Positions 18,301 through 34,019 of a stretch of DNA of 64,000 nt are shown here, one piece after another. The notes under the pieces are model-generated. The model ran no database searches, was not told the origin of the DNA, and saw only the letters and a program-made list of their open reading frames with translations. Source of the DNA: Pyruvatibacter mobilis (GTDB taxonomy: Bacteria > Pseudomonadota > Alphaproteobacteria > CGMCC-115125); contig NZ_CP051630.1 of the NCBI RefSeq assembly GCF_012848855.1, positions 2,893,501-2,957,500 of the forward strand, read 5' to 3'. The position numbers were made by a program, and so were the translations under genes. Position 1 is the first letter of the stretch. Every line of letters begins with the position of its first letter.

Positions 18301-19140
18301 TCAGACGGCGGGTGCCTTGGACTCCGTATAGAGATTGAGGATCGAGGCGGCGGTTTCCTCGATGGAGCGGCGGCTCACATCAATGATCGGCCAGCCATGG
18401 CGCGCATAGAGCCTGCGCGCGGCTGTCACCTCGGCGCGGATCTGGTCGAGGTCGACATAATTGGTTTCAGCGTCTTCCTTCAGCGACAACAGCCGCTGCT
18501 TGCGGATCTGCAGCAAGCGCTCAGGCGAGGCGATGAGGCCGACGACGAGGGGGGACGATAATTGCTCGATCTGGTGCGGCACAGGGATTTCCGGCACCAG
18601 CGGATAGTTCGCCGCCTTCACCCCGCGATGGGCGAGATACATGCAGGTAGGTGTCTTTGATGTCCGGCTGACGCCAACAAGCACAATGTCGGCTTCCTCG
18701 AGATTGTCGAGGTTTTGGCCGTCGTCGTGGGCGATCGTGTAGTTGAGCGCGTCGATGCGGGCGAAATATTCCGCGTCCAGCGTGTGTTGCGAGCCGGGCT
18801 TCTCGGTGCGCTCGGTGCCCAGATAGGCGCCGAGGACCTGCATCACCGGATCGAGCACGGCGATGCAGGGGACCTGCAATTCACGGCACCGGGTTTCCAG
18901 TTCGCGCCGCAGCTTGTCGCTGACCATCGTGAACATGACGATGCCCGGCGATGCCTCAATCTGGCGCAGCACCCGGTCAAGCTGACGCGGCCCGCGCACC
19001 AGCGCATAGATGTGTTCGATGGGATGCACCATCTCGAACTGCGCCACCGCTGCCTTGGCCACCGCATTGAGGGTCTCGCCGGTGGAATCCGACACCAGAT
19101 GCAGATGGAAGAAGGACTTGCTGGTGAGGTCGTCGCTCAT
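18301..19140 (-). CDS. Pyruvate, phosphate/water dikinase regulatory protein (PPSR, DUF299)
   Basis: The 279-residue DUF299 protein is a bifunctional kinase/phosphorylase that regulates PEP synthase or PPDK. The HLVSDSTGETL N-terminus and the P-loop-like LVGVSRTSKTPTCMYLA segment are diagnostic. The ATG at 19140 starts MSDDL; earlier codons belong to the upstream non-coding region. This is the RP001-type gene that flanks the replication origin opposite hemE in Caulobacter and Rickettsia, which is the main reason to place oriC in the adjacent 560 bp. Confidence 0.9.
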   Translation of the reverse strand: MSDDLTSKSFFHLHLVSDSTGETLNAVAKAAVAQFEMVHPIEHIYALVRGPRQLDRVLRQIEASPGIVMFTMVSDKLRRELETRCRELQVPCIAVLDPVMQVLGAYLGTERTEKPGSQHTLDAEYFARIDALNYTIAHDDGQNLDNLEEADIVLVGVSRTSKTPTCMYLAHRGVKAANYPLVPEIPVPHQIEQLSSPLVVGLIASPERLLQIRKQRLLSLKEDAETNYVDLDQIRAEVTAARRLYARHGWPIIDVSRRSIEETAASILNLYTESKAPAV

Positions 19141-19346
19141 GATGTCCAGTGACGTGATCGGGCGGGGGATAAGGGGAGCATCAGCCCCCGAAAGTAGGGC
19201 CTGTGGGAACCGGGCCGGATGGTCCGGTGTTTTGTGGTTACGCCGCTCGCGCCCCGAAGGCAATGGGCGGTGCGAATGCCGCGCCGCAAGGTGTCTTGCA
19301 GCAGCAAACCCTTATGGGAAAAGCACGGGGATGAAGTGCCCCTATC

Positions 19347-19355
19347 TGGGGATAA
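19347..19355 (-). promoter_or_regulatory. DnaA box, TTATCCCCA
   Basis: Eight of nine positions match the TTATCCACA consensus (A to C at position 7). It lies on the minus strand in the putative origin, 37 bp before the CtrA box. Confidence 0.5.
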
Positions 19356-19377
19356 AAATGGTGCTTTCAGACCAGCC

Positions 19378-19386
19378 TGTGAATCA
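19378..19386 (-). promoter_or_regulatory. DnaA G-box-like site TGATTCACA overlapping a GANTC site
   Basis: It matches the Caulobacter moderate-affinity G-box TGATCCACA at eight of nine positions. The surrounding TGTGAATCACA is symmetric and contains a GAATC methylation target. It ends six bases before the CtrA box, so DnaA and CtrA could compete here, as known for the Caulobacter origin. Confidence 0.5.
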
Positions 19387-19392
19387 CAGGTG

Positions 19393-19407
19393 TTAACGAA
19401 GTGTTAA
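19393..19407. promoter_or_regulatory. CtrA binding site, TTAA-N7-TTAA, in the putative origin
   Basis: TTAACGAAGTGTTAA is an exact TTAA-N7-TTAA palindromic half-site pair followed by C, the consensus of the alphaproteobacterial cell-cycle regulator CtrA, which silences the Caulobacter origin. Confidence 0.75.
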
Positions 19408-19617
19408 CGGCCGGTTTGTGAGTCTGTTGATGGGCAAAAGGCACTACCCGGTAGGGCTTGGGGAACAGGGGGACAAGTCTGCGTCATCGGATGGATCTAT
19501 CCTCGCTATCCCCGTTTTCCCCCGCCAGCCAAACCATGCCCATACATGACTGCCCACAAGATGAGGCGTCGTGCCCTATGGGCCGGGGCCAAAACCGGTT
19601 TATATCTTCGGCCATAC

Positions 19618-19626
19618 TGGGGATCA
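19618..19626 (-). promoter_or_regulatory. DnaA G-box-like site TGATCCCCA
   Basis: One mismatch to the Caulobacter G-box TGATCCACA, on the minus strand, close to the A+T-rich tract beside hemE. A weaker plus-strand site TTATCCCTG follows at 19641-19649. Confidence 0.45.
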
Positions 19627-19699
19627 GGACATAGTCCCCGTTATCCCTGCCTCTTACATCTTCATCTATTATTAAAGAATCCTAGATCGGAAGTTCTGC

Positions 19700-20773
19700 G
19701 TGCCGGACGTCAAACAAACCTCTCTTCCGTCCTCCCAAGGTGCAAGGCCTGACGGACGTCTCCTTAAGGCGATCAAGCGGGACATCCAGGCGGTGCCTCC
19801 CATCTGGCTCATGCGCCAGGCAGGACGGTATCTGCCTGAGTACAGGGCAACGCGCGAACAGGCCGGCGGGTTTCTGGATCTGTGTTATTCGCCGGAGCTT
19901 GCCGCCGAAGTCACCTTCCAGCCGATCAGGCGCTATGGCTTTGATGCGGCCATTCTGTTTGCGGATATTCTGCTGATACCGCAGGCGCTGGGTCAGAAGC
20001 TGTGGTTTGAGCCGGGCGAAGGCCCGCGGCTTGAACCGCTTGAGGATGGCAAGGCCATCGCGGCGCTCAATGTGACAGCGTCTGAAGACTTTCTCTCGCC
20101 GATCTATGAGACGGTCGACCGGCTGCGGACAGGGCTGCCGGCGGAAACAGACCTCATCGGCTTTGCCGGCGCGCCGTGGACAGTGGCGACCTATATGATT
20201 GCCGGGCGCGGGACGCCGGACCAGGCCCCGGCGCGGCTGTTTGCCTATCAGCACCGGCAGGATTTCACAGCGCTGATGGATGTGCTGGTGGAAGCCACCG
20301 CGCAGTACATGAAGCGTCAGGTGGATGCCGGGGCTGACCTCCTGCAGATCTTCGATACATGGGCGGGCGTGCTGCCGGAGGCGGAATTCGCCGAATGGTC
20401 CATCGCGCCGACAAAGGCGCTGGTTGAGCGGCTGCGGGCGCTGGGGGTCACGGTGCCGATCATCGGTTTCCCGAAGGGTGCGGGTCCGCTGCTGCCGCGC
20501 TATGTGGCGGAGACCGGTGTGGATGCGGTGGGGCTTGATCCGGCTGTGCCGCTGTCCTGGGCGGTGCCGACGCTGGCGGACGATATTGTCTGCCAGGGCA
20601 ATCTTGATCCGCTGCTGCTGGTGGCGGGCGGTGACCGGATGCTGAAAGCAATCGACGGCATTCTGGACGCCTTCGACGGCAAGCCGTTTGTGTTCAATCT
20701 GGGCCATGGCATCGTGCCGCAGACGCCGCCGGAGCATGTGGCGCAGCTGGTGGAAAGGGTGAGGAACCGATGA
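19700..20773 (+). CDS. hemE: Uroporphyrinogen decarboxylase
   Basis: HemE (357 residues) decarboxylates uroporphyrinogen III to coproporphyrinogen III. The signature [15 protein letters not shown] is at about residues 34-48, and [18 protein letters not shown] follows at about residue 155. Translation starts at GTG 19700 with GGAAG six bases upstream; the next Met lies inside the signature, so GTG is the only sensible start. Its stop overlaps the hemH start (ATGA). It flanks the putative origin, so its promoter may be embedded in origin DNA. Confidence 0.96.
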
Positions 20774-24003: not shown

Positions 24004-24115
24004 CGCCTTATGGGTCTCGCATTTTTCGCGTCTCGCGGGCTGGTTGTGGGCGCGGTGCGAATAATTCGGCATTTGATTAATATTTCCGGCAGTTTTGTTC
24101 CCTATGGTCCGGCTG

Positions 24116-24694
24116 ATGATCGGATCTGTGAACGAGTATGCGCCTGAAACGTGTGCCGGCATGCCATCTGCGCCGCCACTCGCGGCGGTGAACCAGGCGT
24201 TCTGGGAATTTTGGCTCGAGCTGCGCGGCGACCGGGCGATGCCTGCTGCCGGCGACATCAATCCGGCTGGTTTCCGGCATCTGCTGCCGCATGTGAGATG
24301 CATGCGTTGGGACGGGCCAGAGCGGGTGGTGTTCACGCTCTGGGGCACAGGCCTAGGGGAATGGCTCAAGGTCGATCCGACCGGGCAGAATGTCTTCGAT
24401 CTCATTCCTAAAGCGGAAAGAAGCCGGGAGAAGGTAAGGCTGGAGAACCTTCACCGCTATCCGTGTGCCTTCGTTCAGCAGCGATCGGTCACTGATGTGC
24501 GGGGCACGACTTTTCTCTTCGAGTTCCTGACCTTGCCGGTGGCGGCGGGGGCAGATGGCGCGCCAAGAATGATCGGCACCGGCGCGTTCTGCAGTGATGC
24601 CCCGCTCGGTCGGGCTGATGCGGATCCTGATCAGCGAACCGTGCAGCGCTCGTTTCGCTATATCGACATCGGGTTCGGGGTTCCCGCTGAATAG
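24116..24694 (+). CDS. PAS_5-type sensory protein, first of a tandem pair
   Basis: The roughly 192-residue protein resembles the small single-domain PAS_5 proteins common in alphaproteobacteria. The pattern is FWxxWxxLRGDRAMPAAGDINPAGFRHLLPHVRCM..., then VVFTLWGTGLGEWLKVDPTGQNVFDLI and FEFLTLPVA...RMIGTGAF. No output domain, no signal peptide. Ligand unknown. ATGs at 24104 and 24116 are both possible and neither has a good Shine-Dalgarno sequence. The neighbouring gene at 24821 is a diverged paralogue. Confidence 0.7.
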   Translation: MIGSVNEYAPETCAGMPSAPPLAAVNQAFWEFWLELRGDRAMPAAGDINPAGFRHLLPHVRCMRWDGPERVVFTLWGTGLGEWLKVDPTGQNVFDLIPKAERSREKVRLENLHRYPCAFVQQRSVTDVRGTTFLFEFLTLPVAAGADGAPRMIGTGAFCSDAPLGRADADPDQRTVQRSFRYIDIGFGVPAE

Positions 24695-24756
24695 GCTGGC
24701 CCCCAAAGCGACACACGCTTTACGTGTTTAATTGTTCTTGTGCCCGGAAAAGTTGT

Positions 24757-24779
24757 TATTTGGTTGAGATAACCAAATA
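24757..24779. promoter_or_regulatory. Palindrome in an A+T-rich promoter region upstream of the second PAS gene
   Basis: TATTTGGTT (24757-24765) and AACCAAATA (24771-24779) form perfect 9-bp arms around GAGAT. The surrounding 24720-24800 is unusually A+T-rich. It is 42 bp before the second PAS_5 start, suiting an operator; as RNA it could also form a hairpin, but no T run follows. Confidence 0.5.
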
Positions 24780-24820
24780 TTTGACTATCGAGGTGCATAG
24801 TTGGCGGCATATTCAGCTGC

Positions 24821-25534
24821 ATGACGTGTGCGGCTGATCTGCCGTTCAGGGGATACGCCTCGGTGAGCACCGACGACAGTCAAAGACTGATTTCAGGCTG
24901 GGTCTATGAGGCCATGCAGCCGGAGGTGGCCAATGCCGCAGCTGCTGCCGTGAGTGCGCCTCTGGATCAGGTGCCGCGGCAGCATGGACCCGTCAAACTC
25001 ACCCATGTGGCGCACGCTTTCCTTGCCTATTGGTGGCATGTGCGGGGCGACAAGATCATGCCGGATGCTACGGATATCGTGATCCCGCAACTGCGCACCC
25101 TGGCACCTTATGTGCGCTACATGCACTGGGACGGGGATAAGCTGATTCACCGGCTTTGGGGCAGTGCGCTGACTGAGGGGATCGGGCTGGATCTGACGGG
25201 TCACGATGCCCTTGCCTATATCCCCGAGGAGCGGCGGGATGCCAATCGCAACCTGTTCCGGTCCCTGCACACCCACCAATGTGGACTTGTGGTGCTGGTT
25301 CGGAATGACAGCCGGTCCGAAGGCTTGATGGCGGAGCTGACCTTTCTGCCGGTCGCCACAGGGCCCGGCAAACCGCAGCGACTGATCGGCACCATGCAAT
25401 GGCGGCGCGCCGAGGGGGCTTCAGTCGTTCTGCCCATCGAATCCGGCAAGCCTCAGGAGCTCAATCTTGAGGCTATTCTCTTTTTGGATTTGGGTGCGGG
25501 GCTTCCGGATCAGGACCTGCTTGCAGGGCTCTAG
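24821..25534 (+). CDS. PAS_5-type sensory protein, second of a tandem pair
   Basis: The 237-residue protein shares the layout of the upstream gene: AFLAYWWHVRGDKIMPDATDIVIPQLRTLAPYVRYMHWDGDK, HRLWGSALTEGIGLDLTGHDALAYIPEERR, then LTFLPVATGPGKPQRLIGTM. It has a longer N-terminal part of about 60 residues. The two genes look like an old tandem duplication. A GTG at about 24862 is an alternative start. The intervening promoter region has its own palindrome, so it is probably transcribed separately. Function not known. Confidence 0.7.
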   Translation: MTCAADLPFRGYASVSTDDSQRLISGWVYEAMQPEVANAAAAAVSAPLDQVPRQHGPVKLTHVAHAFLAYWWHVRGDKIMPDATDIVIPQLRTLAPYVRYMHWDGDKLIHRLWGSALTEGIGLDLTGHDALAYIPEERRDANRNLFRSLHTHQCGLVVLVRNDSRSEGLMAELTFLPVATGPGKPQRLIGTMQWRRAEGASVVLPIESGKPQELNLEAILFLDLGAGLPDQDLLAGL

Positions 25535-31206: not shown

Positions 31207-31230
31207 CTGCGATCTGGGCAAGTAGCGGTG

Positions 31231-31245
31231 TTAACACCCGGTTAA
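31231..31245. promoter_or_regulatory. CtrA binding site, TTAA-N7-TTAA, upstream of mnmG
   Basis: TTAACACCCGGTTAA followed by C is an exact TTAA-N7-TTAAC match. It lies in the mnmE-mnmG gap about 180 bp before the mnmG start, so it could control the mnmG-rsmG-parA transcript. Confidence 0.7.
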
Positions 31246-31309
31246 CCGTTCCTGAGGCCATGTGAGGACTGCCTGCGGCGTCCGTGATTCACGGGTCTTC
31301 GGCTGCCGG

Positions 31310-31325
31310 TGTTTCACGTGAAACA
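31310..31325. other. parS centromere site 1
   Basis: TGTTTCACGTGAAACA is the perfect 16-bp palindromic ParB binding site. It lies between mnmE and mnmG, about 3.7 kb from parB. ParB should load here and spread. Confidence 0.95.
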
Positions 31326-31340
31326 AATGGAGTCCAAAGC

Positions 31341-31349
31341 TGTGGATAA
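31341..31349 (-). promoter_or_regulatory. Perfect DnaA box TTATCCACA between parS and mnmG
   Basis: TGTGGATAA on the plus strand is the exact reverse complement of the DnaA consensus. It is 15 bp after parS site 1. It could regulate mnmG or mark an origin-proximal element. Confidence 0.7.
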
Positions 31350-31411
31350 TCTCCATGGCGACCCCTTCTCTCTGTGTTGCAGATGGGATATGCACCCGGT
31401 CCATGATCTCC

Positions 31412-33310
31412 ATGTTCAATATCATCGACCCGGCGGATGGATTGCGCTGCGATGTCATCGTGATTGGCGGCGGCCACGCCGGCTGTGAGGCTGCGTCGGC
31501 GTCGGCGCGCATGGGGGCTGATACGCTCCTGGTGACACATCGGGCGGACCGGATCGGGGAAATGTCCTGCAACCCGGCTATCGGCGGGATCGGCAAGGGA
31601 CATCTGGTTCGCGAAATCGACGCGCTGGATGGCCTCATGGGCCGGGTGGCGGATCAGGGCGGTATTCAGTTTCGTGTCCTGAACCGGCGGAAGGGGCCGG
31701 CGGTCCGTGGGCCCCGTGCCCAGGCGGACCGGAAACTGTATCGCGAAGCGATGCAGGCAGCGTTAGGGGCGCAAGATAATCTCCGCATCGTTGAGGCACC
31801 GGTAGAGGACCTGATCTGCCAGGGCCGGGAAGTATCAGGGGTGGTTCTGGGGGACGGCCGGAAGCTCCATGCCGCATCGGTGGTGCTGACGACGGGGACC
31901 TTCCTCCGAGGTGTCATCCATATGGGTGAGGCCAAAAGCGCCGGCGGGCGCATTGGTGACGTACCCGCGATAGGTTTGGCGGAAACCCTTGACCGTTTCG
32001 GTCTTGCGCTCGGCCGTCTGAAGACCGGGACACCGCCGCGCCTTGATGGACGTACGATCCGCTGGGATGTGCTGCCTGAGCAGAAGGGGGATGATCCTCC
32101 CGAGCCTTTCTCGTCTCTGACCTCGGTGATTAGCCAGCCGCAGGTGAGCTGCTTTGTGACCGGGACGACAGAGGCCTCCCATGAGATCATTCGGGGCAAT
32201 CTTGACCGGGCGCCGATGTATTCCGGTCAGATTGAGGGTACAGGCCCGCGCTACTGCCCGTCCATTGAAGACAAGGTGGTCCGGTTTGCTGAGAAAGACC
32301 GGCATCAGATCTTCCTGGAACCCGAGGGTCTGGATGATCCAACCGTCTATCCGAATGGTATTTCAACGTCGCTGCCGGAAGACGTGCAGCTTGCGTTCCT
32401 GAAGACCATTCCGGGGCTGGAAGAGGCCCGGATGATCCGGCCGGGTTATGCGATCGAGTATGATTATGTAGACCCGCGGGAGTTGTCGGCGGGGCTGGCG
32501 GTCAAGTCTGTTCCGGGTCTCTATCTGGCGGGTCAGATCAATGGCACGACCGGATATGAGGAAGCCGCAGCCCAGGGCTTGCTGGCCGGGCTTAATGCAG
32601 CATCGCGCGCTGGTGGTGCGACTGAGATGTCGTTTGACCGGGCCTCGAGCTATCTCGGTGTTATGGTGGATGACCTGATCACGCGGGGGGTGAGTGAACC
32701 CTACAGGATGTTCACCAGCCGGGCGGAATACCGCCTGAGCCTTCGCGCCGACAATGCGGACCAGCGGTTGACCCCTCTGGGCCTTGCTTTGGGGTGCATT
32801 GGGCCGGAACGGCGCGACCATTTCGCCCGCAAGGAGGCCGATCTCGGCAAGGCACGGGCGCTTCTGGAGAACTTGTCCATGCTTCCCAGAGAAGCGGCAG
32901 AGTGGGGTCTCAAGGTCAATCAGGATGGGGTACGGCGGTCGGCATTCGAAATGCTGCGGTATAGGGACGTGGATATGGCCTGGCTGGCCGGAGTCTTCCC
33001 GGAACTCGGGTCCCTGGATCCCGCGGTGGCGCAACAGATGGAGATTGAAGGTGGCTACGCCGTTTATCTTGAGCGTCAGGCAAATGACATCCGAGCTTTT
33101 GAGCGCGATGAGAATGTGAGGCTGCCTCGGGACCTGGATTATGAGGGTGTGCCCGGCCTGTCGATCGAGTGCAGACAAAGGCTGTCCCGGGTGCGGCCGG
33201 CAACCCTTGGCCAGGCAGCCAGGGTTGAGGGCGTGACCGCATCTGCCGTGACGGCGCTGCTCATGTATCTGCGCAGCGGTCGCGGGGGCGCGGTCAGTGC
33301 CGCGGAATAG
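31412..33310 (+). CDS. mnmG: tRNA uridine 5-carboxymethylaminomethyl modification enzyme MnmG (GidA)
   Basis: MnmG (632 residues from MFNIID) is the FAD-dependent partner of Mnm[17 protein letters not shown] is the dinucleotide-binding motif; [26 protein letters not shown] and [16 protein letters not shown] are family signatures; the C-terminal domain contacts MnmE and tRNA. Starts at 31355 and 31403 are also open and none has a Shine-Dalgarno match; 31412 fits the usual distance to the GGGHAG motif. The gene is flanked on both sides by a DnaA box and a parS site. Confidence 0.95.
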
Positions 33311-33340
33311 GGGCCGCGCGTCCGGTTGGTCCGGCCTGTC

Positions 33341-33349
33341 TGTGGATAA
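33341..33349 (-). promoter_or_regulatory. Perfect DnaA box TTATCCACA between mnmG and rsmG
   Basis: A second exact match (TGTGGATAA on the plus strand), in the 49-bp gap between mnmG and rsmG. It directly precedes the AAAGG ribosome binding site of rsmG, so bound DnaA could block rsmG transcription. Confidence 0.65.
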
Positions 33350-33359
33350 AGGTCTGCAA

Positions 33360-34019
33360 GTGTCTGAGATTGAATCCGTTTCCGGTCTAGCCGGTGTTTC
33401 ACGTGAAACACGTGGACGGCTCGAGACCTATCGCGATCTTTTGGTGAAGTGGCAGGCGCGGATAAATCTGGTGGCCCCCTCAACACTCGAGGATGCGTGG
33501 GTCAGACACTTCGCTGACTCAGCGCAGCTGATAGCTCATGCGCCCGACAGGGTCCGGCTGTGGCTGGATGTGGGCAGCGGGGCGGGCTTTCCTGGGCTCG
33601 TGGCGGGCATCATGCTGATGGAAACTCATCCGGATTCGCAGGTATGCCTGATCGAAAGCGATACGCGGAAATGCGCCTTCCTGCAGAGTGTGGTGGCTGA
33701 GACAGGTGCGCCGGTAAAGGTCATACCCATGCGGGTCGAAAAGGCGGAGGCGGCTGTCGCCGCGCTCGGCCACACCGCCGATGTCATCTCCGCGCGGGCG
33801 GTAGCACCGATGCCCCGGCTGATGGAAATGATTGCGCCTTATTGGTCACAGGGCTGCATCGGATTATTTTTAAAGGGACGAGATGTAGCGTCGGAATTGA
33901 CCGAAGCCGCAAAATATTGGACGATCAGGACCTCCCACATCCCCAGTAGCACCCCGGGGGATGGGGTCATACTCAAGCTGGAGGAGCTTGCCCGTGTCCG
34001 CCCCGAACACCCCCATTGA
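33360..34019 (+). CDS. rsmG: 16S rRNA (guanine527-N7)-methyltransferase (GidB)
   Basis: RsmG (219 residues) methylates G527 of 16S rRNA. The SAM-binding LDVGSGAGFPGLV and the downstream ISARAVAPMPRLMEM block are diagnostic. GTG 33360 is chosen because AAAGG lies seven bases upstream; a start at 33297 would overlap mnmG. The codons for VSRET near residue 12 encode parS site 2, a dual-use sequence. The 3' end overlaps the parA start. Confidence 0.93.
   Translation: MSEIESVSGLAGVSRETRGRLETYRDLLVKWQARINLVAPSTLEDAWVRHFADSAQLIAHAPDRVRLWLDVGSGAGFPGLVAGIMLMETHPDSQVCLIESDTRKCAFLQSVVAETGAPVKVIPMRVEKAEAAVAALGHTADVISARAVAPMPRLMEMIAPYWSQGCIGLFLKGRDVASELTEAAKYWTIRTSHIPSSTPGDGVILKLEELARVRPEHPH
33395..33410. 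other. parS centromere site 2, inside rsmG
   Basis: A second perfect TGTTTCACGTGAAACA, about 2.1 kb from site 1 and read in frame as part of RsmG. Paired parS sites near gid genes are classic for origin-proximal partition loci. Confidence 0.95.

What the first reader, a model, noticed from the sequence alone, without database searches (positions are those of the whole stretch)
19141..19699. Likely chromosome replication origin between a DUF299/RP001-type gene and hemE
Seen: a 559-bp gene-free stretch between these two genes, with one-orientation near-consensus DnaA boxes (19347, 19378, 19618; weaker 19164, 19641), an exact CtrA TTAA-N7-TTAA box (19393-19407) six bases from a G-box-like site, three GANTC sites and an A+T-rich end beside hemE. 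Established: hemE and RP001 flank the origin in Caulobacter and Rickettsia, with CtrA and weak/moderate DnaA boxes. Inference: this is oriC and CtrA can repress it. Unlike many origins it has no exact TTATCCACA.
Basis: partly seen in the sequence, partly recalled or inferred. Interest (0 to 1): 0.8.

Follow-up and report, generated by a model that had tools for sequence, protein, structure and literature searches.

The report
Alphaproteobacterial replication origin with CtrA box
The gap beside hemE is very probably where this bacterium starts copying its chromosome; that is the usual place in its class, but here, as in Caulobacter, it carries a conserved docking site for the cell-cycle repressor CtrA next to weak initiator (DnaA) sites, which is rare outside Caulobacter's order.

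Summary
The 559-bp gap lies between the PPSR (DUF299/RP001) and hemE genes of a closed 3.33-Mb chromosome. It holds five DnaA-like sites (at most 2 mismatches), all on one strand; no other 559-bp tile of the window has more than four. It has one exact CtrA box (18 in the genome). Both the CtrA box and the neighbouring TGATTCACA site are kept in all four genomes of this one-genus order.

Replication polarity agrees coarsely. KOPS-like GGGNAGGG motifs switch strand somewhere in 2.868-2.921 Mb (gap at 2.913 Mb) and switch back at about 1.43 Mb. The only two parS sites lie 12-14 kb away. Plain GC skew has no minimum here.

PPSR-hemE origins are common in the class, so the location is ordinary. The CtrA box is not: 2 of 55 other alphaproteobacterial gaps have one, against 17 of 29 in Caulobacterales.

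Also found: the window's only exact DnaA boxes flank the two parS sites around mnmG, one with a second CtrA box, recalling DnaA binding at the Caulobacter centromere. mnmG is the chief rival origin site, but less likely. No binding or replication data exist.

The parts
19141..19699 (.). PPSR-hemE intergenic region, predicted oriC
   Evidence: no conserved gene inside; motif cluster and conservation
18301..19140 (-). PPSR kinase/pyrophosphorylase gene (DUF299, COG1806, RP001 ortholog), left flank
   Evidence: PF03618, E 7.9e-98
19700..20773 (+). hemE, right flank
   Evidence: PF01208, E 2.2e-111
19347..19355 (-). DnaA-like site TTATCCCCA (holds W-box TCCCCA); altered but recognisable in congeners
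19378..19386 (-). G-box-like DnaA site TGATTCACA, invariant in 4 of 4 genomes; overlaps GANTC at 19381
19393..19407 (.). exact CtrA box TTAA-N7-TTAA, exact in 4 of 4 genomes
19420..19424 (.). GANTC (CcrM-type) site inside invariant TGAGTCTGT
19459..19464 (-). W-box-like TCCCCA
19618..19626 (-). DnaA-like site TGATCCCCA; poorly conserved
19641..19697 (.). A+T-rich stretch beside hemE, candidate unwinding element, holds GANTC at 19677
   Evidence: up to 70% A+T per 40 bp; among the least stable stretches of the window
31231..31245 (.). second exact CtrA box, mnmE-mnmG gap, 79 bp before the start of parS 1; a CtrA box at this place also in G001 and G003
31310..31325 (.). parS 1, TGTTTCACGTGAAACA
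31341..31349 (-). exact DnaA box TTATCCACA beside parS 1, conserved in G001 and G003
33341..33349 (-). exact DnaA box TTATCCACA, 54 bp before parS 2, conserved in G001 and G003 and at the same spacing in G012
33395..33410 (.). parS 2

Best explanation
The 559-bp gap is the chromosomal origin. DnaA would assemble on weak, same-strand DnaA sites (one G-box-like, several W-box-like) and melt the A+T-rich stretch beside hemE. Phosphorylated CtrA, bound at the conserved TTAA-N7-TTAA box six bases from the G-box-like site, would exclude DnaA and hold replication off in part of the cell cycle, as at Caulobacter Cori. Shown here: location, motifs, conservation through the sampled order, coarse replication polarity, and a closely similar CtrA in the genome. 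Inferred: DnaA and CtrA binding, unwinding, start of replication, repression.
For: Five one-strand DnaA-like sites, unmatched by any of 114 tiles; G-box-like site and CtrA box invariant in four genomes; GGGNAGGG polarity switches in 2.868-2.921 Mb and back at 1.43 Mb; the only two parS sites 12-14 kb away, same layout in two congeners; GC-skew slope of G003 changes 1.8 kb from the gap, 90% bootstrap -11 to +11 kb; CtrA 82% identical to Caulobacter's; the same gap in Caulobacterales is strongly enriched in CtrA boxes; the location is known as origin in Caulobacter and Rickettsia (PMC1914354).
Against: Plain GC skew has no minimum here and its break in the window genome is estimated 29 kb off with a wide interval. 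The polarity switch zone is 53 kb wide. Only one CtrA box against five in Cori, no exact DnaA box, no IHF consensus. A second DnaA/CtrA cluster lies 12 kb away.
Confidence: 0.85

Rival explanations
1. Replication starts in the mnmE-mnmG gap (31207-31405), 12 kb away, which has an exact DnaA box, a TGATTCAC(G/A) site, a CtrA box and parS; the hemE gap is only a relic or a promoter region.
For: The window's only exact DnaA boxes flank the two parS sites around mnmG and are conserved; the CtrA box and G-box-like core recur there. Skew in the window genome and G001 cannot separate the two sites.
Against: That gap is about 200 bp with one exact DnaA box, no cluster and no A+T-rich end. Skew in the interval between the two gaps is already as high as in the right arm in three genomes, and the G003 break interval just excludes it. 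Across the class parS lies there without exact DnaA boxes, while 26 of 55 other PPSR-hemE gaps hold an exact DnaA box.
Confidence: 0.08
2. The gap is the origin, but its CtrA box serves transcription (hemE, the PPSR gene or an RNA from the gap), not repression of initiation.
For: CtrA boxes mostly act at promoters (established knowledge); hemE lies 293 bp downstream of the box and the PPSR gene 252 bp upstream.
Against: The box is far from both start codons and six bases from a conserved DnaA-like site, with joint conservation; enrichment of CtrA boxes in this gap is seen in Caulobacterales and here, hardly elsewhere, although the flanking genes are the same.
Confidence: 0.25
3. The gap is only a long divergent promoter region and the origin lies elsewhere in the polarity switch zone.
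For: GC skew is uninformative, and the GGGNAGGG switch zone is 53 kb wide.
Against: Motif excess and conservation, parS position, known use of this gap in the class (PMC1914354). dnaA, at 2.7986 Mb, lies outside the switch zone.
Confidence: 0.04

Closest known systems
Caulobacter crescentus origin (Cori)
   Same: same flanking genes, about 400-560 bp, weak DnaA sites of G-box and W-box type, exact CtrA box close to a G-box-like site, parS about 10 kb away on the same side as mnmG/parAB
   Different: one exact CtrA box instead of five sites; G-box-like site is TGATTCACA, not TGATCCACA; no IHF consensus found; belongs to a different order
Origins of Rickettsia (hemE-COG1806 gap)
   Same: same flanking genes, CtrA-type box
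   Different: Rickettsia gaps are shorter (383-396 bp) and about 82% A+T (PMC1914354)
Sinorhizobium meliloti chromosomal origin
   Same: alphaproteobacterium with a conserved CtrA
   Different: no CtrA motif, not bound by CtrA (PMC4433202); Rhizobium-type gaps here hold exact DnaA boxes instead
Caulobacter centromere parS with DnaA binding (Mera et al. 2014, via PMC6399470)
   Same: DnaA sites close to parS, near the origin
   Different: here exact TTATCCACA at both parS plus a CtrA box at one; not seen beside parS in 16 Caulobacterales loci

Membership tests
hemE/COG1806-type alphaproteobacterial oriC | gap between hemE and COG1806 (PPSR) orthologs | tested here: met
hemE/COG1806-type alphaproteobacterial oriC | cluster of DnaA sites above chance | tested here: met
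   five sites with at most 2 mismatches, tile maximum 4; no exact box
hemE/COG1806-type alphaproteobacterial oriC | A+T content above genome average, A+T-rich stretch | tested here: met
   44% A+T against 36% in the window; 59% in the last 70 bp
hemE/COG1806-type alphaproteobacterial oriC | strand-composition switch at the site | tested here: inconclusive
   GGGNAGGG switch within 53 kb; GC slope break at the gap in G003 only
hemE/COG1806-type alphaproteobacterial oriC | replication starts there | not testable with these tools
   needs marker frequency or a plasmid test
CtrA-controlled origin (Cori type) | TTAA-N7-TTAA near or over a DnaA site, conserved | tested here: met
CtrA-controlled origin (Cori type) | several CtrA sites across the origin (five in Cori) | tested here: not met
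   one exact box, one further site with one mismatch in the window genome and none in the congeners; Caulobacterales gaps hold 0-3 exact boxes
CtrA-controlled origin (Cori type) | IHF site | tested here: not met
   no WATCAN5WTR match; the consensus is loose evidence
CtrA-controlled origin (Cori type) | ctrA encoded in the genome | tested here: met
   82% identity over 227 residues
CtrA-controlled origin (Cori type) | CtrA binds and represses initiation | not testable with these tools
   needs ChIP, footprint or change of the box

The most novel reading that the evidence does not exclude
An order-level lineage outside Caulobacterales has, independently or by old inheritance, a Cori-like switch (weak DnaA sites plus CtrA at the origin) together with strong DnaA boxes plus a CtrA box at the centromere, so that one DnaA/CtrA pair would time both segregation and replication.
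Probability: 0.3. Interest if true: 0.6.

Novelty: new member of a known kind. Interest (0 to 1): 0.4.

Why it matters
A 2015 review held that CtrA sites are not seen in origins outside Caulobacter and perhaps Rickettsia (PMC4468827). The survey supports that as a rule (2 of 55 gaps) and offers this order as a conserved exception. It makes testable whether CtrA control goes with loss of strong DnaA boxes: exact TTATCCACA is absent from 4 of 4 gaps here, present in 2 of 29 in Caulobacterales and in 26 of 55 elsewhere (related genomes are not independent). The parS-side DnaA boxes give a second system for asking whether DnaA triggers segregation.

Tried and rejected
Alignment A1 was invalid because minus-strand loci are not turned; redone as A2. 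Plain GC and AT skew do not locate the origin in the window genome. Learned polar octamers added noise near the origin. A class-wide search for G-box plus CtrA box hit 8 of 381 other genomes; their sequences lack the genus's core, and I did not check their locations. The 15-mer TTAATGAAGTGTTAA shared with a Caulobacterales gap (L187) sits in different flanks, so homology is not claimed. IHF consensus: no hit. Brassinga 2002 and Mera 2014 are not held. The genus was not identified; a Pyruvatibacter/Phaeomarinobacter-like organism is a guess from memory that I could not test. The ccrM gene was not looked for.

Full report
WHAT IS THERE. The window is bases 2,893,501-2,957,500 of a closed 3,333,914-bp chromosome, so the gap is 2,912,641-2,913,199. 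It separates a PPSR-type kinase/pyrophosphorylase gene (DUF299, COG1806, the RP001 ortholog) from hemE; the two genes diverge. DnaA-like sites with at most two mismatches to TTATCCACA number five, all on the minus strand (19164, 19233, 19347, 19378, 19618); none of 114 window tiles of the same size has more than four, mean 0.92. Sites 19347 and 19618 contain the Caulobacter W-box TCCCCA, a third W-box lies at 19459, and 19378 is TGATTCACA, one base from the Caulobacter G-box TGATCCACA (box definitions: PMC4285127). W-box-like TCCCC(A/G) occurs six times against 0.57 per tile. The CtrA box is exact; 18 such boxes exist in the genome.

CONSERVATION. The order holds four genomes of one genus. All four keep CTGTGAATCACA, then TTAA-N7-TTAACGGC, then TGAGTCTGT; the 40-base window at this core is 33 of 40 invariant, equalled only at the end beside hemE, while the gap as a whole is 40% invariant. 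All three GANTC sites lie in invariant blocks. The TTATCCCCA site persists in altered form, for example CTATCCACA in G003.

IS IT THE ORIGIN? The motif GGGNAGGG (resembling Caulobacter KOPS, the FtsK guide; from memory) is almost wholly on the plus strand in right-arm samples and on the minus strand in left-arm samples, and switches back between 1,425,120 and 1,428,509. Near the origin it is plus throughout the contiguous stretch 2,921,148-2,997,400, mixed at 2.868-2.883 Mb, with one minus copy at 2,906,531, and mostly minus before 2.868 Mb. The switch is therefore placed only within 2.868-2.921 Mb, with the gap towards its right edge. In G003 and G001 the hemE side is polarised and the PPSR side is mixed. 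GC skew has no minimum, because both arms are weakly G-rich on the plus strand, but its slope changes at the gap in G003 (+1.8 kb, 90% bootstrap -11 to +11 kb) and less sharply in G001; in the window genome the estimate is +29 kb and unreliable. The only two exact parS sites are at window 31310 and 33395, with the same layout in G001 and G003. dnaA is 114 kb away. With the known location in Caulobacter and Rickettsia (PMC1914354) the hemE gap is the best candidate by far.

CtrA. The genome encodes a CtrA 82% identical to the Caulobacter protein. Across the class, exact CtrA boxes occur in 17 of 29 PPSR-hemE gaps from Caulobacterales (0.3 gaps expected from dinucleotide shuffles), 2 of 55 from other alphaproteobacteria (0.48 expected), and 4 of 4 in this order. 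Exact TTATCCACA shows the reverse pattern: 2 of 29, 26 of 55 and 0 of 4. Published data agree: CtrA binds at or near the origin in Caulobacter and Hyphomonas neptunium (PMC7200025), whereas the S. meliloti origin has no CtrA motif and is not bound (PMC4433202). A two-gene tree puts this order beside a Rhodobiaceae-type lineage (L029/G012, L068) whose gaps lack the box, and near part of the Caulobacterales. Gain in this lineage and old inheritance with losses both remain possible; the boxes sit at different places in different Caulobacterales families, so they turn over.

MECHANISM. Most likely DnaA assembles on weak co-oriented sites and melts the A+T-rich end; CtrA, bound six bases from the G-box-like site, excludes DnaA. 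This copies the model published for Cori (PMC4468827, PMC4285127). Beyond presence and conservation of the sites, no step is shown here.

THE mnmG NEIGHBOURHOOD. The only exact TTATCCACA boxes of the window lie at 31341 (mnmE-mnmG gap, beside parS 1) and 33341 (mnmG-rsmG junction, before parS 2), both conserved in G001 and G003. The first gap also has an exact CtrA box (31231) and a TGATTCAC(G/A) site, the same core as at the origin. This is the rival origin site. Against it: small size, no cluster, no A+T-rich end, and already high skew in the hemE-mnmG interval in all three genomes, as expected if the switch is at hemE (confounded by gene direction). parS lies around mnmE/mnmG across the class, but none of 27 other alphaproteobacterial loci or 16 Caulobacterales loci with parS-like sites has an exact DnaA box within 150 bp of them; the sister-lineage genome G012 has one at parS 2 at the identical spacing. 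I read these as centromere DnaA sites like those of Caulobacter, where DnaA binds parS and is needed to start segregation (Mera et al. 2014 as described in PMC6399470). That reading is inference.

VERDICT. The finding is right: an ordinary place for an alphaproteobacterial origin, with a less ordinary CtrA box conserved through its order. New member of a known kind.

Noticed in passing
window 31207-31414 and 33330-33410: The window's only exact DnaA boxes lie beside the two parS sites flanking mnmG, one with an exact CtrA box; conserved in two congeners, and the parS 2 box has the same spacing in G012, but is absent beside parS in 43 other loci.
   Followed up: partly
G000:C1:2868834-2882711 (L053, L054): GGGNAGGG polarity is mixed and GC skew high in this stretch 30-45 kb left of the origin, perhaps an inverted or imported segment.
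   Followed up: no
G000:C1:1425120-1428509: Sharp switch of GGGNAGGG polarity, the likely terminus (dif) region; the arms would be about 1.85 and 1.49 Mb, so unequal.
   Followed up: no
L064 and L032, PPSR-hemE gaps: The only two gaps outside this order and Caulobacterales with an exact CtrA box (TTAAGAGTTCGTTAA and TTAATAAAATATTAA); conservation in their relatives not checked.
   Followed up: no
window 24095-25534: Two adjacent, similar plus-strand ORFs (199 and 237 aa) downstream of rho look like PAS-type sensor domain proteins without an output domain; read by eye only.
   Followed up: no
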